Assembly: GCF_026210795.1 (NCBI RefSeq)
Contig: NC_089429.1
Coordinates: 1-64,000 of the forward strand
Length of the DNA stretch: 64,000 nucleotides
DNA from: Rhizophagus irregularis
Taxonomy: Eukaryota > Glomeromycota > Glomeromycetes > Glomerales > Glomeraceae
Reading direction: 5' to 3'
Under the pieces are notes generated by a model. The model saw only the letters and a list, made by a program, of their open reading frames with translations, made no database searches and had not been told where the DNA came from. A program made the translations under genes and the position numbers. Shown here piece after piece: positions 50 to 25,100 of this stretch (the first letter of the stretch is position 1; the number at the start of each line of letters is the position of its first letter).

Positions 50-2476
50 TACCGTATAGCGCCGCATATAAGACGTACTATTCAAAAATGCCAGCCTAGA
101 TTAAATAAGTATCCCGTATTATTAGAGGAGAGGATACTATAAAAAGGGGGCACATTGTAGAAGTACTAATCATGTGATAATATTATTAACAGTTAAGTAA
201 TCAAAAGAACTCTAACAATTTTCAACCGCAAAATTTAAAATAAAATAAAAAACTTCAGATGTAAAATGTAAAAATTTTGTAAATTCAGAAATTATTGTAA
301 TGATGATCGTAATTCAGATCAGAATAAATCATGAAATTCAATCACGTTTTTCGCGTTTTTATTCTGCAACTTTTATTTCATATAAAATGGGTCCCCGTGC
401 AAACAAAAGAATTAACCGCTCAACAATGACAGAAAAAAAGCGAAGACAATGGAACGCACGTGAAAAAATTGCAATTATTATGTATCATGAGAACGGCCAT
501 AGTAAAAGAAAGACAGCAGACAAGTTCAACATTCAAGCAAAGCAACTTCGTGACTGGATATCTAAAAAACCACAGTTATTAAAAGTACAGGTGGGTGTAA
601 AACGTTTAAATATAGGAGTAAAACCAAAATATCCAGCTTTAGAAACTGCTCTAGTTACCTGGGTTAAAGAAAAAAGAAAAAATCAAAATGCTGTCATACG
701 AAGTATGATTCAAATAAAAGCCCAGACCCTTGCACAACAACGTCAATGGCAAGTTATGTGTTCTGGTATCAGGTCTTTTAGGTTTAGTAATAAGTGGTTA
801 GATGGTTTCGTGAGCTGAAATAAATTGAGTAATCGTCGTCGCACTACAATTGCACAACGTTTACCTGAAGATTTAATCGAAAAACAGCAATCATTTTTGG
901 CATTCGTCATGTACCGCCGCATACAACATGATTATCCCTTAGCATATATAGGAAACATGGATGAAACGCCAGTATCATTTGATCTGCCCACCAATACAAC
1001 TGTTGATGAACTGGGTGCACGATCAGTTAGCATCCGCACTACAGGTCATGAAAGAACAAATTTTACAGTTGTATTAACCTGTATGGCAGATGGAACAAAA
1101 CTTCCCCACTCATAATTTTCAAACTCAAAAATATTCCACGAGGAAATTTTCCCCCAGGAGTTATTATTCGAACAAACCAAAAAGGATGGATGAATGAGAA
1201 TGAGATGCTCTTTTGGATTGAAAATGTATGGGTTAAACGTGAAAGGCTTTCCAATCCACAATCATTATTAGTTTTAGATTCATTTTCTGCTCGCATCGTG
1301 GATTCTGTTAAAAGGCGTTTTATCGAAAAAAAAACTGATATTGCAGTTATTCCTGGAGGGTTGACATCTCGCCTACAACCTTTGGATGTTTAGTGAATAA
1401 ATCATTTAAATCAAAGGTAATAATTATTAATTTTCTCTCCATTTTCTAGGGCGACTCTATTTTTTTTAAAAAACATTTTATTTTTATTTTCACCTTATAG
1501 ATGCGAAGAAAATACAATGAGTGGATAGCGGAAACTATAAAAGATTTAACACCAACTGGCATCATCAAAAGACCCACTTATGAAACTGTAGCACATTGGG
1601 TCAAAGATTCGTGGGAAGCTGTTGATGTTAATTTGATTCGGTGATCCTTTAAATGCTGTGGCATTTCTAACAATCGTGATGGAACTGAAGATGGCTGGAT
1701 TTTTAATTATGATCGTCTTGAACAACAAGCAAGCAAACCTAATGATGAAGTAGCACCACAATCAGATAAAGAGGACGAAAATACAAGTGATGAGGGATAC
1801 GAAACTGATACAAGTGAAGAGAACGGAACCGACGGAAGTGATGAAGAATTTGGAAATAATGAAAGTGATGAGGAATCTGAAAATGATGAAAGTGATGAGG
1901 AACATGGAAATGAAGAGGATAAATCTGATGAGAGTGAATATGAGGAGGTGGAGGATGATGGCTATTCGGGTTATTATGATGAACAAAGGAACAAATTACG
2001 TTAATGTATGGGATGAGTAAAATGGGTGGCTTTGATTGTGTAACCATTGCTAATTGATGGTTTGTTAATAAAATTTCATTTTACGGCAATTGTTTTTTTA
2101 TTACAATTAATTATATGAAAGTGTACGATATACTGTATACATTGAACTATACAGTATATTTATAAATTCAAGGTTAAAACACATGGAATAAAAATTTGCT
2201 TGTAAACATTTTTTATTAGTCCGAAGTGTAACGAAGGACTATATACTATTCGTATCGGTTTCACAAATGTTTGTTGTACATCTGGCACGTGATGATGTGC
2301 GATCGGTTTCCTTTTCCTAGTTAGTATGAAGAATTTTTATTAGTAATTATATACCGGTATTTGATTAGTACCGGGGTACTATTCAGAAATACCCGAATGT
2401 AAACTTGAATAATACACGGGTACTATTTAGGGGGGGTACTATTTGAGGGGGGTACTGTATGCAGCGCTATACGGTA
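50..2476 (+). mobile_element. pogo-like Tc1/mariner DNA transposon, decayed
   Basis: The ends match as inverted repeats of about 19 bases: 50-68 (taccgtatagcgccgcata) and the reverse complement of 2458-2476, with one mismatch. The outermost bases on both sides are TA, the target duplication expected of this superfamily. The interior holds a broken pogo/Tigger-type transposase (387-2004). GGTACTATT-like motifs are repeated just inside the right end (about 2370-2455). Termini and protein agree, so the boundaries are well supported. The element cannot be autonomous in its present state. Confidence 0.82.
387..2004 (+). pseudogene. pogo/Tigger-like transposase (CENP-B HTH + DDE), broken
   Basis: The first block (387-818) has a basic helix-turn-helix of the CENP-B/pogo kind. 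The next (819-1115) is in the same frame after a TGA at 816-818 and contains the first catalytic aspartate in NMDETP. A frame change near 1100 leads to a block through 1393 with the second aspartate (VLDSF) and the family's last motif, PGGLTSRLQPLDV. A GT-AG interval of about 1414-1500 separates it from a C-terminal exon (1501-2004) with another in-frame TGA at 1642-1644. The protein ends in a Glu/Asp/Ser-rich tail (about 1740-2003). Known for the family: this enzyme cuts and pastes the element at TA sites. Two nonsense codons, a stop at 1391-1393 and a frameshift make it a pseudogene. Confidence 0.8.
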
Positions 2477-2542
2477 ATTTCTTTTAATTTACTTTCTTTG
2501 TCGATTGAATCCATTTTTGTTTCTTTGTCAATTGAATCCATT

Positions 2543-2700
2543 TTTGAGATTTTTGAGGAAAAAATTGAAGGAAGAAGAAAAAATTGAAGGAAGTTTGAGG
2601 AAAAAATTGAAGGAAGAAGAAAAAATTGAAGGAAGTTTGAGGAAAAAATTGAAGGAAAAATGAAGGAAGTTTGAGGAAAAAATTGAAGGAAGAAAATTAG
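2543..2700 (+). repeat. Purine-rich minisatellite (gaggaaaaaattgaaggaag units)
   Basis: Imperfect tandem copies of gaggaaaaaattgaaggaag, some with an extra aagaaaaaattgaaggaag, lie directly after the pogo element. A separate 24-base direct duplication (tttgtcgattgaatccattttt) lies at about 2498-2545. Confidence 0.8.
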
Positions 2701-3110
2701 TGTTAAAGATGTTAAATCGATAAAAAATTAAAGAAAAAATTAATTATAAGGGTGATTTTTGAGGAAAAAAATTGAAGGAAGAAAATTAATGTTAAAGATG
2801 TTAAATCGATAAAAATCAGAAAAAATTAATTATAAGGGTGTTGAATCGATTTAAAAATCCAGAGAAAAAATTAATTGTAATGGGTGTCTATTTAATAAAC
2901 TCGAATTGATCTAAAAAATCAAGGGGTGTTTTATTTATTAAAATAAATTTAATTACAATCTAATTATGGTCAATAAGGGTGTTGAATCGATCTAAAAATT
3001 TAGAGAAAAAAATTAATTGTCTCGAATTGATCTAAAAAATCAAAGGGGTGTTTTATTTATTAAAATAAATTTAAATTACCAATTTAATTATCTAATTATG
3101 GTCAATAATA
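2700..3110 (+). repeat. Diverged direct duplications around gttaaatcgat
   Basis: Two to four diverged copies each of a gttaaagatgttaaatcgat block, an aattaattataagggtg block and a ggggtgttttatttattaaaat block alternate here. There is no open reading frame. It looks like a decayed tandem array. Confidence 0.6.
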
Positions 3111-3639
3111 CTCTCATATATGTAATATTTATTTTGTGAATATCACAGCGTAAACTGACGGTTTTGCCTTTTAATATACTCATATTGATAGTCTTTTTTA
3201 CTCATCTTTTTAATTAAATGGCAGAGGAAAAATTTTTTTTTTCCTCTTATTAAAACTTGAATCAAACTTGGATGCAGTGATCCCACTACCCGTGAGAATA
3301 TCAAGAAAATTCCCCTTATATACAAATTTTATTTCATATGATTTCACGATCACCTTTTATAAGTATAGAGTTATCTTTAAACGTAATTAGTTGGTAACGA
3401 TTCAAACAACAAACAATATCCTTAGTTTCACAAATAAAAATTACATCATCTCCATATGATCTAGCAGGTCGAGCGCGGTTTCTATTCATGCGCGATGCCG
3501 ATCCCTACTGTAAACTGTATAGATAATTTCACGTGATCATATAAAAAATCCATCAGAAGTCTGATTTATAACGAAAATTCGCAAGAAATTTCCTTCATAC
3601 TTGCTTAATTTTAAAGTTCAAAAGTCTGATTTATAAATT

Positions 3640-4200
3640 AAAAATCACGATCATCAAGAAAAATTCGCGAGAAATTCTTTGATAGAACCTTAATACTAAA
3701 TTAGCTGAATTAGAATTAAGCAGTATCAAGGAAAATTCTCGCGAATTTTTCTTAAAAACGTGATTTCAATTTTATTAATCGGGGAATTAAGCACGGTATC
3801 ACAAAAATTAAGCAGTATTAAGAAAAATTCTTGCGAATTTTTCTTAAGAACGTGACTTTAATTTATTAATCAAAATTAAAATAAGCGGTATCACATAATT
3901 AAACTTTAAAAATTAAGCAGTATTAAGAAAATTCTTGCGAATTTTTCTTAAGAACGTGACTTTAATTTATTAATCGAAATTAAAATAAGCGGTATCACAT
4001 TTTTAAACTTTAAAAATTAAGCAGCATTAAGAAAAATTCTTGCGAATTTTTCTTAATAACGTGTAATTTATTAATCGAAATTAAATAAGCGGTATCACAT
4101 TTAAACTTTAAAAATTAAGCGGTATCACAAAAATTAAGCAGTATCAAGAAAAATTCTTGCGAATTTTTCTTTAACAATCATGATTTAGATCTATTAATCT
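3640..4200 (+). repeat. Palindrome array (aagaaaaattctTGCGaatttttctt), orphan copy
   Basis: At least five copies of a 25-26-base near-perfect palindrome are spaced about 95-115 bases apart (near 3730, 3820, 3925, 4030, 4145), with a partial copy near 3655. The spacers share motifs such as aagcagtatcaag, aacgtgactttaatttattaatc and aagcggtatcac. The same family recurs at 19.97-20.38 kb and 25.5-26.65 kb around a Plavaka-type transposase gene. No transposase is found beside this copy. Confidence 0.85.
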
Positions 4201-7390: not shown

Positions 7391-8489
7391 TGTAAACGGT
7401 CAAATATCAAGCACGAAAAGATGATAAAATCCAATCACCAAATGTAATTGCCAAATATTAAGAACGAACAAATTGATTATGAATTGGCGTAGATGGATAA
7501 ATAATTAGCCGAAAAGGATAAACATTTAGGAAGAGTAATGATCTACATGATGTAATATTTATCAAATGATTGACAAAGAACCAATAGGATAAATAGAGTC
7601 GATCAATTGCGGCTTAGCGATCTTTAACAATAAGAACGATAAGAAAGAATAATTATAAGCCACAAAAGATAGATTATAAGCAAAACACATAAAGCGAATT
7701 AAAAGAACATATAAAATAATATCAGAAAGATTAAAGAACACAAAATAATGTAAAAGATAATATAAAAAGATAGTATAAAGATGGAACGTAAAAGATAATA
7801 TATTAAAAAGAACATATATAAAAAGATAGCATATTAAAAGATAGCATATTAAAAGATAGCGTATTTAAAATATAGATAGTATATTAGAAAGATAATTCAA
7901 AGATAATATGTAAAAAGAACATAAAAGATAGTATATAGATAGAATAGAAAGTAGCATAAAAATTGTATATATAGAGAGCGGAATTCAAGGTGATTCCATA
8001 GTTCTCATCCACAGAACTCAATAAAAATATAAGTTTTATTTTTTTAATTATTTGTTAGTAAAGTTTAATGTTAATTAAAGGTAATAGGTTCGCCCTAAAC
8101 TTTAATTAATGTTGGCTTAATTAATTTTAATTGAGTAAATGGAAATTTTAAGGTGAATTAAATATACACTTTTGGAAAGTAATAATTCGTAGCGAGAGCT
8201 ATCGAAGTTTGAAATTAAAGGTAAAAGTGGATATAATTTGGGGAAAATTTAGAGAAGTTAAATTTTATTTTATTTCGTTTGACGTTTTATATTACTAACG
8301 TTATCTATGTCGTGAACCAAGAATGTTGTATGTTGTTTGTTGATTATGTTGTTTGTTAATTATGTCGTTGATTATTTGCTTGTTCGTTTAATTGTTCGTT
8401 CGTTCGTTTATTCGTTCGTTCGACCATGGGAATGCCCGTTCGATGTGGCAACTCTGTAAATTGATGACAGAGGGAATTGGGGGATCTCA
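7391..8489 (+). repeat. 5' LTR
   Basis: The LTR begins tgtaaacggtc and ends ggatctca (1099 bases). The centre is rich in degenerate aaaagatagtatat units. The 3' part has cgttcgttcgtttattcgttcg tetranucleotide repeats (about 8385-8425) ending in ccatgggaatgcccgttcg. It is a near-identical mate of 17197-18294. Confidence 0.95.
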
Positions 8490-8491
8490 TA

Positions 8492-8509
8492 TGGTGCATG
8501 CTCGCAAGA
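8492..8509 (+). other. Candidate tRNA primer-binding site
   Basis: Two bases after the 5' LTR the sequence reads tggtgcatgctcgcaaga. The leading TGG is what a tRNA 3' CCA end would pair with. I could not assign the tRNA from memory. Confidence 0.5.
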
Positions 8510-10072
8510 AAGGAAATGATCATCATCACATGATTATTATTATAATGAATATGAAAATTTAATTTCGTTAGTAAGTCACTGATAGGTATTATTAATCAAT
8601 ATTTTATTTTAGAATTTATTTTTAGATTTCAGGTTTTGACGAGTTCAAAAGGAACCAATAAATCAATAAGGATTTAATTGAGTTAAAAAACTTGAAAAGG
8701 TGAAAGATTGGAGTTTGGAGTTGTGCAAGTAATCACTTAATCGATAGAAAGCACAAGAATATTTCTTTCGGGAATAAAGTACCTGAGAAATTTCATAAGG
8801 AGATGTGGAAGTGAAAGATGAATTTTGGAATAAAGATTAATAATGGGAGAACACCAATGTATTATCTGGGGTTCATCTGTGTGGTATGGGTTACCTCTGA
8901 GTTTGAATTTTGGATAAATGCTCGAGATTGGAAAATTTTTATTCTTCGACATTAAAGATTATAACGTATGGGTTACGTCAAATCTGGATACCCAGCTCAA
9001 TAACGCGCGAATTGCTTTGGGGACGGGGAATGAAAATTGTAAAGACACCTACTATCAAGAAACATTGAATGGATAAAATGGGACAAACCTGTAAACTATC
9101 GTGCTTTTACCCAATGGGAAAAAGATAGAGATAAGCCCAGTATAGGTCCACCAATTTGAGGAAAGATAAGTTGGTTTAGATGAGTTTTATGGATAGCTGA
9201 TGACTTTTGAAACTGGATTTTGGAAGGTTAGATTCACCCGTTAAGAGACAAGTCGGCCAACGAAGGAGGAAAAAATGGATACATTGTATTGTTACAGGTC
9301 CTAGGCTACATTTCAGATGAAGGTTCCTGGTGTAGTGTCCTAGTTCACGCTCTCATTACAATGTTCCATTAAAAGAAGATAAAATAGAAGGATATTTACA
9401 CATTAACGAGCCGTATAATGAATATTACGTGCAGTATTTAATAATAGAGTAAAATCCGAAAAGAAGGACGTTGATTTAAAAGAAGGACATTTATTTAAAA
9501 GAAGAACATTTATTTGAAAAAGAATATTTATCTGAAAAAGAACATTTATTTGAAAAGAAGGACATTTATCTGAAAAGAACGACATTTTGCGTAATATAGA
9601 TTAATTTACATAACATAGAATATTTAGTAAGAAGGATTTATGTGGATGATAAGAAAGATTGAAGATTCGCAAACTTTAAAAGTTATGAAAATTTTGGAGT
9701 TTGTGATATGTGAAATTATGAATCACAGTGATAGGAGATAAATTTTAGAATGTGATATGTGAGATTATGGATCTTGGTGACAAAAGATAAACCTTGTGGC
9801 GCAGTAAAAACCTCCGCAGTCTGAGGAGATCGTGGACTTAGAAAAATTTTTGAAATTTTGAGGCGCAGCAAAAATTAATAATAGAATATGGAGTAGTAAA
9901 TATATAAAACTGAAAGATGGAATTTAAAGATTGAAAGGAGCAATCTATTTAAAGATAAAAGAATGTTTAGAAGATTGAAAATAGAAACATAGAAGATTGA
10001 AAATAGAAACGATGAGAGTGAAATATATATATATATAAAAGGAGGTGAAATTTTAGTTAAGATTCTGGATGA
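8510..10072 (+). other. Untranslated leader of the gypsy element
   Basis: About 1.5 kb lie between the primer site and the first open frame, with no long plus-strand ORF. It contains five to six tandem units of gaaaagaaggacatttattt (about 9460-9585). Packaging or dimerisation signals would be expected in such a leader, but none can be named from sequence alone. Confidence 0.6.
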
Positions 10073-10753
10073 ATGATTACAACGATGGAATGGTATGAAA
10101 CTTGGAGGGTCGATTATGAGAACCACAAATTAAGACATGACGAAAATATTGGAAATGTGGATATAGGTGAATTAAGAGGAGAAAATATAACATGTGAAAT
10201 ATGTTATTCAGTAAAAGATACGCCAGAAGTTTTTAAGAAATTTTGGAGAATATTACAAAAATTTGAATATACAATAAGGGATTATAATGCAGAAACTATA
10301 AGGGCGTTAATAAATTTATTAAGTATAGATAGTGAAGAAAGAAATAATTATACAAAAGGAAAAACTAGAGATGCATTAGATATAATAGTTGAATCGATAA
10401 GATACTTGAAACAACCAATATTGAGAGAGAAAGGATTAAAGATAATAATAATAGTGATTGTGAGAGACTGTATGGAAAATGACAAAGAAGATGAAACAAT
10501 GGACAGATTAATAGGGAATGAAGAATTGATAAGATACGGCTATATTTTGGAAGATTGGGATGTAAATATAAGATTTAGGGAATTTTATGAATGGCATAAA
10601 GTGGCTATATCAGATTTTATAGAATGGAAAGATAGTGTTATTAGAAAATACAAAAATATATTGTATGAGGAAGCAGAATTAAAAGAAGATGAGTCAATAG
10701 AAAAAATAGAAGCGTTTAAACAAAAGATTAGATCAATGTTGAACACAATGTAG
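10073..10753 (+). CDS. Unrecognised ORF upstream of gag in the gypsy element
   Basis: The ORF encodes 226 residues, acidic and Ile/Glu-rich, mostly predicted helix, with no motif I recognise. Its stop (10751-10753) overlaps a frame one base back (-1) that is open from 10732 and runs straight into gag. The ORF may therefore be an N-terminal Gag extension reached by -1 frameshifting, or a separate protein. No in-phase X XXY YYZ slippery heptamer lies in the 10732-10753 overlap. A purine-rich aaaaggaggtgaaatttt stands about 30 bases ahead of the start. Its preservation in a young element suggests that it is used. Confidence 0.6.
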   Translation: MITTMEWYETWRVDYENHKLRHDENIGNVDIGELRGENITCEICYSVKDTPEVFKKFWRILQKFEYTIRDYNAETIRALINLLSIDSEERNNYTKGKTRDALDIIVESIRYLKQPILREKGLKIIIIVIVRDCMENDKEDETMDRLIGNEELIRYGYILEDWDVNIRFREFYEWHKVAISDFIEWKDSVIRKYKNILYEEAELKEDESIEKIEAFKQKIRSMLNTM

Positions 10754-10926
10754 GTCGTGGTGGAGGAATTAAAAAAGAGATAGTTGAAAAAGTTTATGAT
10801 AAGATTAGAGGGTTTGAACAATTAAATATAGATGAAACAGATAGTGATGATACACCAAGAAGCTATACTATAACAGAAACAGACGATGAGAAAGAAGGAA
10901 ATTTACCAATTAGTAAAAATGAAGAA

Positions 10927-13206
10927 ATGTCAGATGAGGAATCTGATGAATCTATTGAATCTAATAATGTTGAAGAAACAGAAACAACAAAGATATTCGA
11001 AGAAATAATTAGAATGGATTTGAAAAGAATGGGATATGATGTAGAAATAACGGAAATTGAAAGAATAAGAAAATTTGGAGTAACCGCAAAGATAATAACA
11101 ACATATGAATTTATGAAGAAATATTTAACAATATGGAATCTTGAAGATGAAAAATTAGATGAACAAATATTACAATGGAGAGTTGAAAACACAAAAGAAT
11201 GCGGAAGATGTGAAATTGAAAGATTAAAGAAAGAATTTGAAATTGGAAAAGAAACCTGCATAGAATGTGAAAAAGATATTGAAAAAGAAAATCCAACAGA
11301 TGATGAAGATGAAATGGAAGAGGATATAAAAGGACCCGAAATTGGCTCAAGTAAAAAACCAAAAAGTAAAGAGAAAAATAAAAAATCAAAGGAAGTACCT
11401 ATAATACCAATAACACCAGTACCACCAATAAAACCAAAGATAACAATGGCAGCATCAAGAGATGAACTCAGAGCAGATCTAAGAGCATTAATGAATACTA
11501 TGTATAATCATGATATTGGGGCAGATTGGAACAATTTAGTATTACCACCAGTAACATTGACAGGATTACAAGGAGAAGTTCAAGCGAATACTAATGCGAT
11601 AGGAAATTTAAACGCAAATAGAGGAGCTATTGTAGAAATACCAGCATTTTATGGTACCAGTGGAGAAGATCCAGAAGAATGGGCAGATAAATTTGAGGAG
11701 ACATTTACAGCGAATGGTTTAGGGAATGATGACGCACAGAGATTTAGATTAGCAAAAGCGAAATTAATGGGAGGAGCAGCAGATTGGTTAAAGACTGAAG
11801 GAGTAAATATTGTCGATTGGAATGTTAATGGAGATCATAATTTAAGATTAAGAGTAAGAATAATTGGAAAGTATGCAAGTGATGAAATTAAAGATAGATG
11901 GCTAGAACAATTAGAAAAGATTAGACAGGGAGACGAGAATGTAACTCAATACCTTACGAGATTTAAATATATGTTAAAGAGAGCGGGAGGTGATGCAGCA
12001 GTAGCAGCAAATCAGCAAAAGAGAATTTTTATTAGAGGATTAAAACCGGACTTTACTAAAGACGTAGTAATGGGAAATCCAGCAGATCTAAATGCAACAT
12101 TTCAGATAGCAAAAAACGTAGAAAGAGGTTTAGAAGCATTAACAGATAAAGTACAACCAAAAGGAATTAATGATGAACAAAGAAGACAAGAACCTATTGT
12201 TCAAGGGAATGTAAGGAATAATAAAGGGGTAAGTGTAGATGAATTAGCAGACAGTTTTGCGAAGTTACAAATTAAGATGTTAGAAGATGAGAATGAAAGA
12301 TTAAGAAATTTAGCGAGTCAGAGCTATAGGCGATTGCCACAAAGAAACCAACCAATGCAAAGAAACCAACCAATGCAAAGAAATCAACCAATTCAAAGAA
12401 ATCAGTCATTCCAAAAAAGAGTACCGACATGCTATACATGTGGTAGAGCTGGTCATTATTCAAGAGAGTGTCCAGAGAAAAGAAGGAATGTAGGAGTGAA
12501 TATGATAGACGAATACGATGACCAAGAAGAATATGATTATGATGGATATGAATATGGGGAACCACAATACGGTGAAATGTATTATACACAAGGTTATTAC
12601 GATGATTATGAAGATAGGGAATTAAATTACCATAATGAATTATACGCAAAAGATAACGCAGTAAAAACAAGAAGACAAACAAGAAGGTCGAATCCAATAA
12701 TGGGATATAAAAATAATGGTGAAGAAGGAAATTTACAAGAAGAATTAAGAGAAGCGGGAAATAGAATGGATGATAGAGAAATACCAAGTGGAACAACAAC
12801 ACCAAGATATACGCCCGAAAGGATAGAACAAAATAATGTATACAAAGATAGTCAAAATTGGGATAATCCAATAGGACCAGAAGATTATAATTATGGTCGG
12901 CGACCCATGACAAAAGATGGAAGATTTTATAAACCAATGTTCACAAAAGAAGGCAAAGCATTTTACCCTGGAATGCGGCAAGATGAATTTGGAAATTGGG
13001 TTAGAACAAAGCCATCAGGGACAGGAAAGCCCAGAGAATATGGACCGAGATTAACTGATGGAATACCACCTTACGATATTGTGGAAGACGTGAAAAATTG
13101 TAGAGCGAATATAACAATTGGACAAATGATAAATGAGAATACTAAGTATCATAAACAATTGAGAGAAGGAACATATAGACCAAGAAGCATAAACGAGAAA
13201 AATTGA
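10927..13206 (+). CDS. gag: Gag polyprotein (capsid + CCHC nucleocapsid)
   Basis: The ORF encodes 759 residues. The first ~170 are acidic then Lys-rich. A Retrotrans_gag capsid fold lies at about 235-390 (starts near IPAFYGTSGEDPEEW; includes the GGAADWL and YLTRFKYML segments). Then come tandem QPMQRN/QPIQRN repeats (about 475-495). A canonical zinc knuckle, CYTCGRAGHYSREC, has C502, C505, H510 and C515. The Tyr/Asp-rich tail contains a GRFYKP/GKAFYP near-repeat. The product forms the virus-like particle and binds the genomic RNA. The frame is open upstream to 10732, so the true N-terminus may be earlier than this ATG. The stop is TGA followed by CTA, and the same frame continues into the protease. 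Confidence 0.92.
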   Translation: MSDEESDESIESNNVEETETTKIFEEIIRMDLKRMGYDVEITEIERIRKFGVTAKIITTYEFMKKYLTIWNLEDEKLDEQILQWRVENTKECGRCEIERLKKEFEIGKETCIECEKDIEKENPTDDEDEMEEDIKGPEIGSSKKPKSKEKNKKSKEVPIIPITPVPPIKPKITMAASRDELRADLRALMNTMYNHDIGADWNNLVLPPVTLTGLQGEVQANTNAIGNLNANRGAIVEIPAFYGTSGEDPEEWADKFEETFTANGLGNDDAQRFRLAKAKLMGGAADWLKTEGVNIVDWNVNGDHNLRLRVRIIGKYASDEIKDRWLEQLEKIRQGDENVTQYLTRFKYMLKRAGGDAAVAANQQKRIFIRGLKPDFTKDVVMGNPADLNATFQIAKNVERGLEALTDKVQPKGINDEQRRQEPIVQGNVRNNKGVSVDELADSFAKLQIKMLEDENERLRNLASQSYRRLPQRNQPMQRNQPMQRNQPIQRNQSFQKRVPTCYTCGRAGHYSRECPEKRRNVGVNMIDEYDDQEEYDYDGYEYGEPQYGEMYYTQGYYDDYEDRELNYHNELYAKDNAVKTRRQTRRSNPIMGYKNNGEEGNLQEELREAGNRMDDREIPSGTTTPRYTPERIEQNNVYKDSQNWDNPIGPEDYNYGRRPMTKDGRFYKPMFTKEGKAFYPGMRQDEFGNWVRTKPSGTGKPREYGPRLTDGIPPYDIVEDVKNCRANITIGQMINENTKYHKQLREGTYRPRSINEKN

Positions 13207-13212
13207 CTACAC
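13204..13212 (+). promoter_or_regulatory. Candidate stop-codon readthrough site, UGA-CUA-C
   Basis: Gag ends in TGA immediately followed by CTA CAC, and the protease lies in the same frame with no further stop. UGA-CUA is a known leaky context in several RNA viruses and in some cellular genes. Only 18 bases lie between the stop and the first protease ATG (13225), leaving little room for an independent initiation site. Readthrough is inference. Confidence 0.5.
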
Positions 13213-13215
13213 TCG

Positions 13216-13719
13216 GTGGGAACTATGAAAAATGAAGAGAAAAGAACTACAGCAATGAGAACAGAATTAGAAGTTGAAGATCAATTAGTGAATGTAATAA
13301 TAGATACTGGAGCAGCAGTAAGTGTGATAACAGACAAATTAAGGAGGAGATTGAATATACCTATATTTGGAAAAAGTAAATTTAGATGTACAATAGCAAA
13401 TGGGCAAAAGATAGCAGCGTTAGGAAAGGCAAATATAACTTTGAGATACAAAGATGAATTGGAAATACTAAAAGAAGTTGAGGTAATCGATTCAGAAGAA
13501 GAGGATCTAATTTTGGGAAATGATATATGGAAGCTGTATAATGCAAAAATAAATTTTGAAGATCATACCTTAAGAATAGAAGAACAAGGAGAAATAATAA
13601 CGATTCCAGTAGGATATGAAAGAGAAGCAATATGTGAAAGTGAGGAGAGCGAGGATGACGAAGAATATGAAAGCAACGATGAAGGAGAGGTATTCAAAAT
13701 GCACCAGAATTTTAAATAG
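13216..13719 (+). CDS. Retropepsin-type aspartic protease
   Basis: The open stretch encodes 167 residues in the gag frame. The displayed first codon is GTG and the first ATG is 13225, so translation probably enters by readthrough from gag. The active site is IIDTGAAVSVI (aspartate at 13303-13305). The flap/ALGKA segment and the LILGNDIW motif follow, as in Ty3-type proteases, which act as dimers to mature Gag-Pol. The last ~45 residues are acidic. The pol frame begins just after the stop, one base back: it is open from 13716, and the protease stop is 13717-13719. No canonical slippery heptamer is in phase, although TTTAAAT occurs there out of phase. Confidence 0.88.
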   Translation: MGTMKNEEKRTTAMRTELEVEDQLVNVIIDTGAAVSVITDKLRRRLNIPIFGKSKFRCTIANGQKIAALGKANITLRYKDELEILKEVEVIDSEEEDLILGNDIWKLYNAKINFEDHTLRIEEQGEIITIPVGYEREAICESEESEDDEEYESNDEGEVFKMHQNFK

Positions 13720-13751
13720 AAAGTCTTGGCTCTGAGAGAGAGACGGAAAAG

Positions 13752-15833
13752 ATGCTCGAACCAAGTGGAAAATTTATGCAAAAACTAAGTATAGGGAAAG
13801 TAGAAGAACCAATTTGGGAAAATATGGTAAAATTACTATTAGAATACCAAGATATTTTGGAATATGACGAAGAGATAGAAGGAAGAACGAAAGCGGCGCA
13901 ACATGAGATAAAAATAAAAGAGGGGGTAGAACCAATAAAGCAAAGAAGATACAAAGAAACAGATGAAAAGGCAAAATTTATAAGCGAAGAAGTGGATAAA
14001 TTGTTAAAACAAGAAAGGATAAGGAAATCAAAAAGTCCATGGAGTTCACCGGTTACGTTAGCAGGAAAGAAAACGGGAAAATATAGATTCTGTATTGATT
14101 ACAGAAAGTTAAACAAGATAACTATAATAGATAGTTTTCCTTTACCAAGAATAGATGAATTGTTAGACAAATACAGAAAAGCAAAATGGTTTTCAAGTAT
14201 AGATTTAGCGGCGGGATTTAATCAAGTAGAAATGAAAGAAGAAGACAAAGAAAAAACAGCATTTGTATGTTCAAAGGGATTATTTGAGTATAATGTAATG
14301 CCATTCGGTTTAACTAATGCACCAGCAACATTTCAAAGATTAATGGATGAAATATTAGAAGAATACATAAACGATTTTGTAGTAGTATATATTGACGATA
14401 TTATGATATATTCAGAAAATTTAAAAGACCATATGGAACATGTGGAAAAAGTATTAAAGAAGTTACAGGAGAATAATTTAATAATAAAACTAAAGAAATG
14501 TAGATTTTTGGAAAGAAATATAGAATTTTTAGGACATATAGTAGGAAATGATGGATTAAGGCCAGACGATAAAAAGATAGAAAAGATAAAAGAAATGAAG
14601 GCACCAACAACAGTGAAAGAAGTAAGATCATTTTTGGGACTTTGTTCATATTACAGAAAATTTGTGAAGAATTTTTCAAAGATAGCAAGACCAATAAGTG
14701 ATTTGAGAAAGAAGGGAATACCTTTCATTTGGGGAAGAGAACAACAAGAAGCGTTTGAAAAATTGAAAGAAAAGTTAATACAATATCCAATATTGCGACA
14801 TCCAGATTGGAAGAAAGAATTTTTATTAATAACAGATGCATCAGGAAAAGGATTAGGTGCAGTATTAAGTCAAAAAGATGAAAAAGGAAAAGAAGTAGTA
14901 ATAGCATATGCAAGTAGAAGTTTATTACCAGCAGAAGAAAATTATCCGATAACAGAATTGGAATGTTTAGGAATAGTTTGGGGAATTCAACATTTTCATA
15001 AATATTTAATCGATAGAAAATTTAAAGTAATAACAGATCACAGTGCATTAAAAGGATTAATGAATGCAAAGATACCAAAAGGAAAAAGAGCAAGATGGGT
15101 GATGGAATTACAGCAATATAATTTTGAAGTAATACATAGGTCGGGAAAAGAAAATACGAACGCCGACGCATTAAGTAGGTTATTAAAGATAGTAGAGGAT
15201 CAACCAGAAATAGTAATAATCGACGGAGTAGACGGATTAGGAAAGACAAGTATAGTACAAAATTTAATTGAAGAATGGGAAAAGCAAGGATTAAAAGTAA
15301 GATTCAACACTTATAAGAGAAGAAGAAAAGATAAAGATGAATTTTATGAATCAAAGATGGAGACAGAATGGAAATTCAGAAAAGAAGTAGTGGAACAAAT
15401 AAACAGAAGAATGCTAGAATATGACGAAGATACAGATATAATAATTTTAGACAAATCACCATATTGTGAATATTATTATCAAAAGACGAAAAGTTTTGAC
15501 AGAGGGTTAATTACTCCACATGGAAATCATGAGATGGAAAAAGAAATATTCAGACTGAAAGAAACAATAGACAAATCAATAGTGATATTTTTAGAAAAGG
15601 ATAGTGATGTATGTTGGAAAAATTACATTGGAAGAGAAACAAAGAAAACGGAAAAATCGTCATATCCAACATTAAAGAAGGATGAATATTTGGACATGGT
15701 TAGAATGTTTGAAGAAAATCAGGGCGTGTACAAAGATACTAAAAGATACAGTCGAGTAAAAGTCAAAAATGACAATAGTAGTTGGAGAAAAGTATTTAAA
15801 GAGGTGGAGAAATGGAGAAGAGCACAGAACTAA
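13752..15833 (+). CDS. pol: Pol: reverse transcriptase - RNase H - nucleotide kinase fusion
   Basis: The ORF encodes 693 residues. Reverse transcriptase occupies about 90-270, with FSSIDLAAGFNQ, MPFGLTNAPATFQ and catalytic Y213-I-D-D216. The thumb and connection include FLGLCSYYRKF. RNase H spans about 355-475 (LLITDASGKGLGAVLSQ, TELECLGIVWG, ITDHSALKGL, NADALSRL). Residues about 483-693 are a P-loop kinase: a strand, then Walker A GVDGLGKTS (G492-S500, K498), a hydrophobic strand ending in IIILDKSPYCEYYYQ (D567, placed like the DR(Y/S) motif of thymidylate kinases), then IVIFLEKDSD and a basic lid-like NYIGRETKK. The fusion is seamless, with no stop and no composition change. Integrase follows as a separate frame after two in-frame TAA codons. 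RT and RNase H copy the RNA. The kinase would be expected to phosphorylate a (deoxy)nucleoside monophosphate, which is inference. Confidence 0.9.
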   Translation: MLEPSGKFMQKLSIGKVEEPIWENMVKLLLEYQDILEYDEEIEGRTKAAQHEIKIKEGVEPIKQRRYKETDEKAKFISEEVDKLLKQERIRKSKSPWSSPVTLAGKKTGKYRFCIDYRKLNKITIIDSFPLPRIDELLDKYRKAKWFSSIDLAAGFNQVEMKEEDKEKTAFVCSKGLFEYNVMPFGLTNAPATFQRLMDEILEEYINDFVVVYIDDIMIYSENLKDHMEHVEKVLKKLQENNLIIKLKKCRFLERNIEFLGHIVGNDGLRPDDKKIEKIKEMKAPTTVKEVRSFLGLCSYYRKFVKNFSKIARPISDLRKKGIPFIWGREQQEAFEKLKEKLIQYPILRHPDWKKEFLLITDASGKGLGAVLSQKDEKGKEVVIAYASRSLLPAEENYPITELECLGIVWGIQHFHKYLIDRKFKVITDHSALKGLMNAKIPKGKRARWVMELQQYNFEVIHRSGKENTNADALSRLLKIVEDQPEIVIIDGVDGLGKTSIVQNLIEEWEKQGLKVRFNTYKRRRKDKDEFYESKMETEWKFRKEVVEQINRRMLEYDEDTDIIILDKSPYCEYYYQKTKSFDRGLITPHGNHEMEKEIFRLKETIDKSIVIFLEKDSDVCWKNYIGRETKKTEKSSYPTLKKDEYLDMVRMFEENQGVYKDTKRYSRVKVKNDNSSWRKVFKEVEKWRRAQN
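15193..15833 (+). other. Thymidylate-kinase-like domain inside Pol
   Basis: This sub-feature of Pol marks the non-retroviral domain. It starts right after the RNase H end signature (NADALSRLL) with IVIIDGVDGLGKTSIV, the usual first strand and P-loop of dTMP kinases and related dNMP/deoxynucleoside kinases. It then has an arm of about 60 residues containing basic clusters (KRRRKDKD), the LDKSPY motif, and a C-terminal helix. Its length of about 205 residues equals a typical thymidylate kinase. Whether the substrate is dTMP, another dNMP or a nucleoside cannot be decided from the sequence. Confidence 0.75.
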
Positions 15834-15893
15834 AAATACAGAACACATAACGAAAATAACAAATTTAGAAGTGAAATCAATTAAAGAGGTATT

Positions 15894-17120
15894 ATGGAAG
15901 AAAATAATTACAAGAGAATAATTGACAATATCGAAAAAGAGAATAAATATGAATTGAAAGAAGGAGTTCTATATAGAGTAAAAGGACAAAACAAATTTAA
16001 AGTAATCAGGGATTATGAATACGAAGGATTGATGTACATGATGCATGATAACGAATTATCAGGACATTTTGGAGTAGAAGCGACATTAGATAGAATAAAA
16101 GAAAATTATTGGTGGAAAAATATGAAAGAAGATGTAGAAGAATATGTAAAAACGTGTTGGAATTGTCAAATGAGAGGAAAACCAAGAGGAAAGAACGAAT
16201 TAATGCCGATAAAGATAAATGAACCATTCGAGATGATTGGAATAGATATAGTTAGACCATTAAAAGAGACAGAAAAGGGAAATAAGTATATTGTAGTAGC
16301 AATGGATTATTTTACAAAATGGCCCGAGGCCGCACCACTAAAAGAAGCTACGGCGAAAGAGGTAGTAGAATTTATTTGGAGGGATATAATTTGTAGACAT
16401 GGGTGTCCAAAGAAAATAATTAGTGATAGAGGGACTCACTTTAACAATAGAATGATGGAAGAATTGGTAGGAAGGTGTGGAATAAATCATAGATTAAGTA
16501 CACCATATAGGCCACAAACAAATGGTTTGGTCGAAAGATTCAATAAAACTTTATGCGAAGGATTAGCCAAATTAGGAGAAGAAAATTGGGATAAACATAT
16601 ACCATCCGTATTATTTGCATATAGGACGAAGAAGCAATCATCAACAAGAATTAAACCTTTTTATGCAATATACGGAAGGAGAGCGAAACTACCATTAGAT
16701 AAAGACGAAAATAAAATAACATTAGCTGACAGAGTAAAGATATTAATTGAGGAGCTACCAGTAATAAGAAGAAAAATAAAAGAAAATGTGGAAGAAGCTC
16801 AAGAGAAACAAAAACAACAACACGACAAAAGGGGAATTAGAAAACCTAAATTTGAAATAGGAGAAAAAGTATTATTATATGAAGCATGGAGAGAGAAACA
16901 ATGGTCGGGAAAATTGCAGAACAAATGGAAAGGACCATATTTAATTCACGAAGAATTTGGAAATGGAGCGTATAAACTCAAAGAATTAGACAGAAGAATA
17001 CTAAAAACACCACAAAATGGAGAATGGTTAAAGAAATTTTATGATCGAAGGGGATTTACACCAAAAATAGTAATTAAAGGAAAAGAGGTATTCGATAAGA
17101 CCCGAGTTCGATTCGATTAA
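15894..17120 (+). CDS. int: Integrase
   Basis: The ORF encodes 408 residues. The N-terminal HHCC zinc finger uses H51, H58, C88 and C91. The catalytic DD35E core is intact: D118 (IGIDIV), D178 (ISDRGTHF) and E214 (NGLVERFNK). A C-terminal GPY/F module (KWKGPYLIHEEFGNGAYKL, about 345-365) supports target binding. It is in the same frame as Pol but separated by TAA at 15831-15833 and 15882-15884, with its own ATG at 15894. It is therefore either re-initiated, expressed from a spliced RNA, or reached by readthrough of two stops. The stop falls just upstream of a 37-base direct duplication (17094-17160). Confidence 0.93.
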   Translation: MEENNYKRIIDNIEKENKYELKEGVLYRVKGQNKFKVIRDYEYEGLMYMMHDNELSGHFGVEATLDRIKENYWWKNMKEDVEEYVKTCWNCQMRGKPRGKNELMPIKINEPFEMIGIDIVRPLKETEKGNKYIVVAMDYFTKWPEAAPLKEATAKEVVEFIWRDIICRHGCPKKIISDRGTHFNNRMMEELVGRCGINHRLSTPYRPQTNGLVERFNKTLCEGLAKLGEENWDKHIPSVLFAYRTKKQSSTRIKPFYAIYGRRAKLPLDKDENKITLADRVKILIEELPVIRRKIKENVEEAQEKQKQQHDKRGIRKPKFEIGEKVLLYEAWREKQWSGKLQNKWKGPYLIHEEFGNGAYKLKELDRRILKTPQNGEWLKKFYDRRGFTPKIVIKGKEVFDKTRVRFD

Positions 17121-17160
17121 AATTATTATGGATAAGACACGAGTTCGATTCTATTAAAGT
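17094..17160 (+). repeat. Tandem duplication at the integrase stop
   Basis: gataagacMcgagttcgattcKattaaaRtt occurs twice, at 17094 and 17131. The first copy codes the last integrase residues and the stop, and the second is untranslated. Confidence 0.8.
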
Positions 17161-17179
17161 TATTTGTGAGGTCACAAAT

Positions 17180-17196
17180 AGCGAAGAGGGGGATAA
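17180..17196 (+). other. Polypurine tract of the gypsy element
   Basis: agcgaagagggggataa lies directly before the 3' LTR TG. It is purine-rich apart from one C and one T. This is where plus-strand DNA synthesis would be primed. Confidence 0.7.
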
Positions 17197-18294
17197 TGTA
17201 AACGGTCGAATATCAAGCACGAAAAGATGATAAAATCCAATCACCAAATGTAATTGCCAAATATTAAGAACGAACAAATTGATTATGAATTGGCGTAGAT
17301 GGATAAATAATTAGCCGAAAAGGATAAACATTTAGGAAGAGTAATGATCTACATGATGTAATATTTATCAAATGATTGACAAAGAACCAATAGGATAAAT
17401 AGAGTCGATCAATTGCGGCTTAGCGATCTTTAACAATAAGAACGATAAGAAAGAATAATTATAAGCCACAAAAGATAGATTATAAGCAAAACACATAAAG
17501 CGAATTAAAAGAACATATAAATAATGTCAGAAAGATTAAAGAACACAAAATAATGTAAAAGATAATATAAAAAGATAGTATAAAGATGGAACGTAAAAGA
17601 TAATATATTAAAAAGAACATATATAAAAAGATAGCATATTAAAAGATAGCATATTAAAAGATAGCGTATTTAAAATATAGATAGTATATTAGAAAGATAA
17701 TTCAAAGATAATATGTAAAAAGAACATAAAAGATAGTATATAGATAGAATAGAAAGTAGCATAAAAATTGTATATATAGAGAGCGGAATTCAAGGTGATT
17801 CCATAGTTCTCATCCACAGAACTCAATAAAAATATAAGTTTTATTTTTTTAATTATTTGTTAGTAAAGTTTAATGTTAATTAAAGGTAATAGGTTCGCCC
17901 TAAACTTTAATTAATGTTGGCTTAATTAATTTTAATTGAGTAAATGGAAATTTTAAGGTGAATTAAATATACACTTTTGGAAAGTAATAATTCGTAGCGA
18001 GAGCTATCGAAGTTTGAAATTAAAGGTAAAAGTGGATATAATTTGGGGAAAATTTAGAGAAGTTAAATTTTATTTTATTTCGTTTGACGTTTTATATTAC
18101 TAACGTTATCTATGTCGTGAACCAAGAATGTTGTATGTTGTTTGTTGATTATGTTGTTTGTTAATTATGTCATTGATTATTTGCTTGTTCGTTTAATTGT
18201 TCGTTCGTTCGTTTATTCGTTCGTTCGACCATGGGAATGCCCGTTCGATGTGGCAACTCTGTAAATTGATGACAGAGGGAATTGGGGGATCTCA
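17197..18294 (+). repeat. 3' LTR
   Basis: The LTR is 1098 bases, tgtaaacggtcg...ggatctca. Compared with the 5' LTR I see A/G and G/A changes near positions 12, 145 and 780 of the LTR and one missing A. The right flank is TCGC, the target duplication. Confidence 0.95.
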
Positions 18295-22104: not shown

Positions 22105-25100
22105 ATGCCTTTGTGTACGTGTACTCACTGTAAAGCTTTAACAAATGGTATTGGAAAAGAAATTCATAGAACAACAGTAATTCGTCATATGAAAAAAGAA
22201 CAAGAGGAGCAAGAACTAGAAAATGCATACCAAAGTCTTCATTCTGAAGAAAATTATTTTGAAGAAAATGAAGAAAATGAAGAAGAAAACTCATATGAAG
22301 AACGCTCATCTCCTATGGAAATATTGGAAATATCTGACAATGAAGAAATTCTTATAGAGGAAGAAAATCTTACTACCTTACATAATGATGAGGCTTCTAT
22401 GGAAATTCTCTCCAGTTTTCAAGATGAGGATGAGGAAATTGATGATTACTATCATAAAAGCGATGACCTAAACCATTATGATTCTCAAAGTGAATTAGAG
22501 TTTGATACCTCTGATGATAAAGAAGGTGAATTTCGAAATAATTATAATAATATTTTAAATTAGTAATTTACCAACTTTTTTTAGATAATACGACTTTTTC
22601 TAATGAATTGTTCGAAGGATTAAGGCTTTTATATGTGAAATCGAATTTTAATTTTTCTGAAGCAGCATTTAATAATATATATAAAGCCTTCAATAGAAAT
22701 AAAATAAGTTTTAATAAAGTAAAAAGAAAGCTTGGTTCAATAGTAGGAATTGAACCAAAAATATATAATATGTGCGTTAATTCATGTTGTGCATTCGTAG
22801 GAGTTTTAGAAAATGAAACAAAATGTAAATTTTGTAAGGAGGATCGATATTATAGTAATGGTAAAGCGAGAAAAAATCTACCTTTTATTTCTATAATTGA
22901 GCGTTTAAAGCTTCAATTTAAAAACCCTGAAAGATCTAAAGAACTATTATATAGGCACAATTATACTTGTAATAAAGGAGAATTTGCTCATAATAACATA
23001 GGTGACATCTTTGATGGACAGATTTATCAAGAATTATTAAATGACGAATATTTTCCTGATCCTAGAGACATCGCATTTACTGCTTCTTGCGACGGCTACC
23101 AAATATTTCGTCAAAAGACCGATGATTGTTGGGTGTTCCTGTTTCTAAATAATAATTTACCTCAAGAATTAAGAGTAAAGAAAGAAAATTTAATGGTAAC
23201 TTTAATAATCCCGGGGCCAAAACAACCTCAAGATTTTAATTCATTTCTCTATCCATTAATTCAAGAAATGAAATCCTTACAAGGTATATTTTAAATAAAT
23301 GGTACGTAATAAATGTAATATTTATTAATAATATTTTTAATATTTACAGATGGAATCTCTTGTTACGATGGTAACAAAGAGGAACAGTTTACTCTACGTG
23401 CTCACATTCTGGCTTGGACTGGCGATATCCCTGCTTTTTCAAAGGTTCTATGTTTAACAGGACATAATTCATACTCAGGTTGCAGATTTTGTAATCTTCG
23501 AGGGACTTTAAATGAAACGAATAGACATGTGTATTATCCATTGCAACAAAATATTGATCCTAAACGATTACCAATTCGAACACATGATGAAATACTGAAT
23601 AGCACAAATCAAATAGAACGTCTGGAGGGAGATCGTAGAGAAACTTATATACGTGACTGCGGTTGGTCCAATATTTTAAAATAAAAATAATTTCTTAGTA
23701 ATTAATATTAATATATTTTCTCAATTTTAAAAATTTTTTGTTTAATAAAAAAAATTAGGAATTAAAGGAAAGAGTATTTTATTTGAGTTATCTTCTATAA
23801 ATTTTCCACGTTCATTTCCAGTAGATATAATGCACCTTTTTTTCGAAAATGTTGCACCCCATATGTTTCGACATTGGATAGGAAAATTCTATCCAAAAAA
23901 TAATGAATGGAACTCAAATGAATATACAATAAGTTCTAAAACATGGGTTGAAATTGGTGAAATCATGGAACGAAGTAGATCTCATATGCCACCTGATATT
24001 GGATGTCCTCCACGCAATATCGTTAAACATTCAGCTGGGTTTAAAGCTGTAGAGTGGGCTAATTGGATCATTTTATTCTCTTTACCATTACTAAAAGGGC
24101 GATTGTCGCAAAGGTAATAAAAAAAATCAAATTGTTGGCAGATAAAATAATAAAAAGTCTGCTGATAACATTATTTAACTTAAAATAATAGTAACCTCTT
24201 AGGATGGTCAAGATTTGTTGAAGCTGTCAAGTTATGCATTCAACCTCTAATAGAATTTGAAGAGCTAGATTTAATTCGAAATTTATTAATAGAATTTTAC
24301 AATCATTATGCAAAGTAATTTTCTTATGAAATTTATATATGCCTTTTTCTTTAAACGATATTTTAATTGATCGCGTGAATTTTTTTGTGCAATAGTTCAT
24401 ATGGCGTTGGAGGAGAAAGATTACCGGCATTTTTAATTTCTTTTCATTATTTATTACATGTAATAGATTCGATTGAAGACTTTGGCCCTTGTCGTGGATT
24501 TTGGCAGTTTCCGATGGAGAGGTTTTGTGGAATGTTAATTCCACTTGTTAGCTCTCGAAAACTACCATATGTGAATTTGTTTAATAATGTGTTGATGCAA
24601 GAAAGATTTAAGTATCTGCAACTTTTACCAATATATAATGAAAAAGTTTTTTCCAATTTTAAAGAAAAAGAAAAAAAAACATGGCCGGTGCATAGAGTAT
24701 ATTCTAATGAATTATATGTTCACGAATACGAATTTTATTCACCATTTGTTAATTGTGTATTAACAAAAAATGAAGTCATAAAGTTAAAGCAATGTTATGC
24801 AGCTATATTTCAAAAGAATACTAGCGAAATTACGGTGATTTTATATTATAACTCACATAATAATATGTATAAGAATATTCTTTTTTAAAAAAAATAATAT
24901 ATAATTTTTTTTTATATAGGACATTAAAGAAAACTATGCTAAGTATGGAAAACTTCGTACAAAGGATGGTAACATTATATCATCTAAGTGGTGGAAAAAA
25001 GAAAATGATAGTAGTCGAAATGATTTTTGCATCGCTGTAAGAAATAAATATATTAATTATTATTATTGTTTCATTATATATTCAAAATTCAAAATATTAA

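What the first reader, a model, noticed from the sequence alone, without database searches (positions are those of the whole stretch)
15193..15833. A thymidylate-kinase-like enzyme fused into a Ty3/gypsy Pol between RNase H and integrase
Seen: after the RNase H end motif the same frame continues into GVDGLGKTS (Walker A), a strand with LDKSPYCEYYYQ and a lid-like basic segment, ~205 residues, ending just before integrase. Known: gypsy Pol normally passes from RNase H to integrase. Some non-primate lentiviruses carry dUTPase at exactly this position, and dTMP kinase uses this P-loop. Inference: the element brings its own nucleotide-monophosphate kinase to raise dNTP supply for reverse transcription, perhaps dTTP in an AT-rich genome. 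I know of no described gypsy lineage with this fusion.
Basis: partly seen in the sequence, partly recalled or inferred. Interest (0 to 1): 0.92.

Follow-up and report, generated by a model that had tools for sequence, protein, structure and literature searches.

The report
Retrotransposons carrying their own nucleotide kinase
In a symbiotic soil fungus, one branch of virus-like jumping genes carries, next to its DNA-copying enzyme, a conserved enzyme domain of the kind that helps make DNA building blocks, probably to feed its own replication.

The parts
7391..8489 (+). 5' LTR (TG..CA, 1099 bp); target-site duplication TCGC just outside
10073..10753 (+). 226-aa leader ORF upstream of gag, no family over its cut-off
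10927..13206 (+). Gag ORF (Retrotrans_gag, CCHC knuckle), ending TGA followed by CTAC
13216..13719 (+). aspartic protease ORF, same frame as Gag
13752..15194 (+). reverse transcriptase and RNase H (RVT_1, RT_RNaseH)
15201..15830 (+). TMK/dNK-type nucleotide kinase domain, C-terminal part of the RT-RH ORF; P-loop GVDGLGKT at 15225-15248
15831..15893 (+). kinase stop TAA and 60-nt gap without any ATG before the integrase start
15894..17120 (+). integrase ORF (H2C2, rve)
17197..18294 (+). 3' LTR (1098 bp; 3 substitutions and 1 indel against the 5' LTR)

Best explanation
A clade of Ty3/gypsy elements in Glomeraceae has acquired, most simply once, a P-loop kinase of the dTMP-kinase/deoxynucleoside-kinase branch, lying between RNase H and integrase, most likely a deoxynucleoside-monophosphate kinase acting on dTMP or a similar dNMP. 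Made as part of the RT-RNase H protein (in another subfamily with integrase), it would be carried into the virus-like particle and turn dNMP into dNDP beside the reverse transcriptase, raising local dNTP, above all the dTTP needed to copy an RNA that is ~44% A. Shown: the domain, its place, conservation, fold, selection, clade distribution, A-richness. Inferred: enzyme activity, substrate, packaging, benefit to reverse transcription.
Against: The window copy is under Pfam's curated cut-off, and other P-loop families follow close behind (AAA_14 and NPHP3_N 31 of 34 members, KTI12 26 of 34). The profile's best PDB sequence matches are FtsY/SRP GTPases (E 3e-6 and up, P-loop region), with yeast TMK only at 0.06. 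The TMK signature Arg is Lys and the [YFH] is Ser (DKS), and DKSPYCEYFY looks as much like the DRTPLSSYFF of the fungus's own dNK. Fold scores do not separate TMK from dNK. hhalign against the host TMK is weak (probability 69, 103 columns), and MAFFT does not align the middle basic motif as I do by eye. Most dS values are above 1. The A-rich/kinase link is one phylogenetic contrast. Integrase is broken or not opened in 18 of the 30 best-scoring copies. No expression or biochemical data.
Confidence: 0.6

Rival explanations
1. It is a deoxynucleoside kinase (salvage type, thymidine/deoxyadenosine kinase-like) that phosphorylates nucleosides, not monophosphates.
Against: No acidic residue after strand 2 where dNKs have the catalytic Glu (recalled; own dNK reads HETIEEW, element FNxFKRRR); P-loop GVDG is TMK-like; genome search with the dNK model gave 3 matches, none at an element kinase, while 97 of 106 matches of the TMK model are at element kinases.
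Confidence: 0.2
2. It is a P-loop kinase of another substrate, such as RNA/DNA 5'-OH ends (polynucleotide kinase) or the tRNA primer, serving primer or end repair.
For: Weak KTI12 matches; relative P0133 weakly matches a phage polynucleotide kinase family (2.6e-4); the basic cluster KRRR could bind nucleic acid.
Confidence: 0.08
3. It is an inactive, structural P-loop domain, kept for particle assembly, RT-IN spacing or nuclear import.
For: The ORF partner varies (RT-RH or IN), which would suit a scaffold; no activity is shown.
Against: Walker A lysine, Asp13, D86/K87 and R147/E148 are kept in all or nearly all of 34 chosen relatives and in 30 of 30 best-scoring copies.
Confidence: 0.12
4. Host gene or assembly artefact: a cellular kinase fragment joined to an element by chance.
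For: None beyond the prior (no call speaks for it).
Against: 144 distinct loci on 30 of 32 contigs, three fungal species plus metagenomes, and the same RH-kinase-IN order under different ORF boundaries.
Confidence: 0

Closest known systems
dUTPase-bearing retroviruses and LTR retrotransposons (bdelloid Juno/Vesta/TelKA; basidiomycete elements; PMC5408684, passages read)
   Same: a nucleotide-metabolism enzyme captured inside pol of a reverse-transcribing element, presumably serving the dNTP pool
   Different: enzyme is a P-loop kinase, not a dUTPase; lies between RNase H and integrase, while the paper places dUTPase between PR and RT in those retrotransposons (in retroviruses variably, also between RT and IN)
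dTMP kinase family (Pfam PF02223; S. aureus TMK 4qg7)
   Different: 11% identity, DKS instead of DR[YFH], below the Pfam cut-off in the window copy; part of a retrotransposon pol
Phage thymidylate kinases, PHROG 761
   Same: best sequence-profile match (E 2.6e-14, residues 6-207)
   Different: no direct match in 50,697 phage records by tblastn; encoded by a retrotransposon
Deoxynucleoside kinases (dCK/dGK, PF01712)
   Different: catalytic Glu after strand 2 absent
Kinase-less Ty3/gypsy elements of the same genome (L053-L059, L073-L082)
   Same: RT-RNase H, and integrase where it was held (L053-L059)
   Different: no kinase match in L053-L059 and none listed near any of the 61 top RNase H places; a separate RT-RH clade; less A-rich

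Membership tests
Ty3/gypsy LTR retrotransposon | two LTRs with TG..CA ends and target-site duplication | tested here: met
   7391-8489 and 17197-18294, TSD TCGC
Ty3/gypsy LTR retrotransposon | order Gag-PR-RT-RNase H-IN with gypsy-type domains | tested here: met
   Pfam gag, CCHC, asp protease, RVT_1, RT_RNaseH, H2C2, rve, with the kinase between RH and IN
dTMP kinase (PF02223) | score over the family's curated cut-off | tested here: inconclusive
   window copy 19.4-20.8 bits against 27; L031 copy 28.4 bits
dTMP kinase (PF02223) | TMK fold | tested here: met
dTMP kinase (PF02223) | DR[YFH] signature motif (recalled) | tested here: not met
   D-K in 34 of 34 and S in 33 of 34
dTMP kinase (PF02223) | phosphorylates dTMP | not testable with these tools
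   needs an enzyme assay
Deoxynucleoside kinase (PF01712) | acidic catalytic residue after strand 2 (recalled) | tested here: not met
   FNxFKRRR, N38 34 of 34; own-genome dNK has HETIEEW
Deoxynucleoside kinase (PF01712) | match to the dNK profile | tested here: not met
   no dNK row for the window kinase at E<=0.1; 3 genome matches, none at an element kinase; relative P0133 18.6 bits, under cut-off
PHROG 761 phage thymidylate kinase | significant full-domain profile match | tested here: met
   E 2.6e-14, 33 of 34 members
dUTPase-bearing LTR elements | dUTPase domain | tested here: not met
   no dUTPase match at E<=1 in the Gag, PR, RT-RH-kinase or IN ORFs

The most novel reading that the evidence does not exclude
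A whole retrotransposon clade replicates with a dedicated dNMP (dTMP) kinase fused to its own reverse transcriptase, a cassette exchanged between element lineages; the enzyme feeds the dTTP demand of, and may have helped to shape, their A-rich genomes. It would be a retroelement that alters its own nucleotide pool by synthesis rather than by dUTP removal.
Probability: 0.35. Interest if true: 0.9.

Novelty: new variant of a known kind. Interest (0 to 1): 0.78.

Why it matters
Reverse transcription can be limited by dNTP supply, and retroviruses are known to guard that supply with dUTPase (recalled; dUTPase placement in PMC5408684). A retrotransposon clade with its own conserved nucleotide kinase fused to RT would be a second, different solution, and would make a link between an element's enzyme content and its skewed base composition testable. 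It also shows a swap of an accessory enzyme between elements, and may explain public fungal and metagenome proteins named only 'thymidylate kinase' or 'hypothetical protein'.

Tried and rejected
PDB sequence search of the kinase: single sequence gave only weak P-loop matches; profiles gave FtsY/SRP GTPases first, read as P-loop plus preceding strand, since yeast TMK 1tmk follows (E 0.24 and 0.06) and the fold search points elsewhere. tblastn of the kinase and of NUDIX-kinase P0133 against 50,697 phage records: no match. Viral contigs with A1 and P0133: nothing; with A3 and A4: 1 and 4 loci (one contig in both), distant phage TMKs found through the P-loop. Genome contigs with A1: nothing; the donor is unknown. 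Recent capture of the host TMK: rejected, its sequence is canonical and far. NUDIX-kinase P0033: in the fungus's own genome only its kinase part and a stretch just before it matched, so no NUDIX-fused host donor was seen. Single stop read-through to integrase: unlikely in the window, two in-frame stops lie between. Papers: three searches on the very subject returned zero; two returned 6 and 3 papers, none on it by title and abstract start; one listed 20 of 123, with 'nucleotide kinase' absent from all 20; four were for context. Second structure job not used. Foldseek against PDB and BFVD could not be run, so no viral structure comparison.

Full report
WHAT IS THERE. The window is the first 64 kb of a contig of a 146.7-Mb, 32-contig genome; a protein 100% identical over the segment is recorded from Rhizophagus irregularis DAOM 197198. 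The element runs from 7391 to 18294: LTRs of 1099 and 1098 bp with 3 substitutions and 1 indel, TG..CA ends, 4-bp duplication TCGC. ORFs on the + strand: a 226-aa leader ORF, Gag, protease, RT-RNase H-kinase (13752-15833) and integrase (15894-17120). Pfam finds no dUTPase in the four gag/pol ORFs.

THE KINASE. From ~15201 the RT-RNase H frame continues into a P-loop domain that ends at TAA 15831. Integrase has its own ORF; between lie 60 nt, a further in-frame stop and no ATG. In the 30 best-scoring copies (so biased to intact ones; 151 matches in all) 30 of 30 keep the whole kinase and the same stop codon; distinct codon variants against the window copy are 65 synonymous, 36 nonsynonymous, 0 stops, and 30 of 30 keep eleven key residues. 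Their other parts fare worse: the RT-RNase H frame upstream is broken in 6 of 30; the first ATG after the kinase opens a full 408-codon integrase in 12 of 30, a shorter one in 13, and none in 5. Lower-scoring kinase matches include fragments and copies with stops.

ORF ARRANGEMENTS. Clade A (window): RT-RH-K | IN. Clade B (L032, L033, ~60%): RT-RH-linker-K (777-779 aa) | IN. Clade C (L035, 54%; L036): RT-RH (493 aa) | K-IN (600 aa). Public protein records of R. irregularis and R. clarus also join kinase to integrase (P0027, P0029, P0032; gene models, splicing not checked). About 20 of the 95 hits are environmental proteins of 250-267 aa with the kinase alone, but I did not see their contigs. 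The order RH-K-IN is constant while the ORF boundary moves from one side of the kinase to the other.

COPY NUMBER AND DISTRIBUTION. Of 150 listed kinase matches (151 reported, a lower bound), 144 loci lie more than 3 kb apart, on 30 of 32 contigs. Of 150 RNase H places (264 candidates, 150 scored), the first 61 have no listed kinase within 1.5 kb downstream, and 87 of the other 89 have one; one exception (C18:667214, L078) falls in the kinase-less clade, the other (C13:673482) has a kinase match about 15 kb downstream. Three protein searches gave 37, 95 and 32 hits; those with an organism name are from R. irregularis, R. clarus and Glomus cerebriforme, the rest have none. RH and kinase are joined also in R. 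clarus P0034 and in G. cerebriforme P0095 and P0098.

SUBSTRATE CLASS. Residues tip it to a monophosphate kinase. Invariant in 34 of 34 (rows that I chose from the hits): N38, K41, R42, R44, F61, R62, V66, N70, R72, D86, K87, Y90, Y93, Y95, R147, E148. The fungus's own dNK (C28, 112 bits) carries Glu after strand 2 (HETIEEW), the place where dNKs hold their catalytic base (recalled); the element family has FN.FKRRR. Host TMK reads FPDR (over a splice joint made by eye), SANRWE and DRYAYSGVSY at places that I read as collinear; MAFFT does not align the middle motif this way, and hhalign supports only 103 columns at probability 69. Against: DKS in place of DR[YFH], and likeness of DKSPYCEYFY to the dNK motif DRTPLSSYFF.

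SELECTION AND EXCHANGE. Six copies (window plus five of the ten loci first fetched) were compared in pairs by NG86: kinase dN/dS 0.07-0.19 in 13 of 15 pairs, dS saturated in 2; RT 0.10-0.23 in 13 of 15, RNase H 0.06-0.32, IN 0.08-0.29; most dS values exceed 1 and are rough. L038 and L039 differ by dS 0.08 in RT and 0.05 in RNase H but 1.61 in the kinase and 0.44 in integrase. Identity per 100 nt of L038 is 95-100% from 1500 to 3000, where the kinase begins, 62-78% through it, lost in the gap that follows (3600-4000), and 80-99% again in integrase; the L038 kinase is 87% identical to the window's over 3022-3618, with lower identity on either side. The trees agree: RT-RH joins L038 with L039 (99/98), the kinase tree joins L038 with the window (95/89). 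The kinase has moved as a cassette at least once.

ONE CLADE. In a tree of 18 RT-RH rows, 11 kinase-bearing rows (8 own-genome, 3 from the protein search) are one side of a 100/100 branch from 7 kinase-less ones; with 25 rows (8 and 17) the same. The 17 are about seven lineages, the 8 about four, as some rows are near-copies. L034, L036, L037 and L040 were left out (near-duplicates or broken), as were L001-L030. One gain is the simplest reading; rooting is by midpoint, and all kinase-less rows are from this genome. For L073-L082 only RT-RH was fetched; their lack of a kinase rests.

BASE COMPOSITION. The element's + strand is 43.7% A and 9.8% C. In RT-RH coding DNA, 8 of 8 kinase-bearing rows have 41-46% A and 8-11% C, 17 of 17 kinase-less rows 28-39% A and 15-22% C. 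Minus-strand cDNA of such an RNA takes up ~44% T. This is what a dTTP-supplying enzyme would serve, but it is one clade against the rest, so a single contrast.

PRIOR WORK. Searches of the open-licence PMC library showed no retrotransposon with a nucleotide kinase (listings only, with 16, 22, 29, 54 for context). PMC5408684 (passages): dUTPase in bdelloid elements, earlier reported among retrotransposons only in basidiomycetes, between PR and RT; in retroviruses variably placed. PMC11075540 (passages), a curated R. irregularis transposon study: 'kinase' occurs once, for expanded protein-kinase genes. Lentiviral dUTPase and A-richness are recalled.

VERDICT. Real, conserved, found in one element clade of Glomeraceae, and to my searches undescribed. 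Identity as a TMK/dNK-branch kinase ~0.9; as an active dNMP kinase serving reverse transcription ~0.6; as a dTTP-supply device tied to A-richness ~0.35.

Noticed in passing
window 13204-13212; L032, L035, L038: Gag and protease share a frame across a TGA followed by CTAC in 4 of 4 lineages looked at, the known leaky UGA-CUA context (recalled), suggesting read-through.
   Followed up: partly
window 13711-13752; L035, L038: RT open frame starts at the protease stop in the -1 frame in 3 of 4 lineages (not L032), with GTCTTGG just after; possible recoding or restart.
   Followed up: partly
L032, L038 (kinase-IN gap); L035 (RH-kinase gap): Small ORFs fill the gaps; in L032 and L035 the next domain's ATG overlaps the small ORF's end by about a dozen nt, as in stop-restart translation.
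   Followed up: no
L038 vs L039: Swap of the kinase cassette between two otherwise closely similar elements, with a sharp left edge at the kinase start.
   Followed up: yes
L054, L055: A kinase-less gypsy lineage has ~300 aa of Cys-rich unknown sequence after RNase H, about 1.1 kb between RH and IN.
   Followed up: no
P0033 and P0133 (metagenome proteins): NUDIX hydrolase fused to a kinase of this family, without RT: a nucleotide-metabolism partner.
   Followed up: partly
L041 (C24:3288271): Host TMK paralogue, apparently with introns, and a degenerate P-loop (EGCEDTNTT).
   Followed up: no
L065 (C28:1224011-1224604): dNK-type open frame (336 aa, 112 bits) in the fungal genome.
   Followed up: no
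window 28649-31243 and 22608-23294: Other mobile-element remains: RT plus RNase H ORFs, and a Transposase_21 ORF.
   Followed up: no
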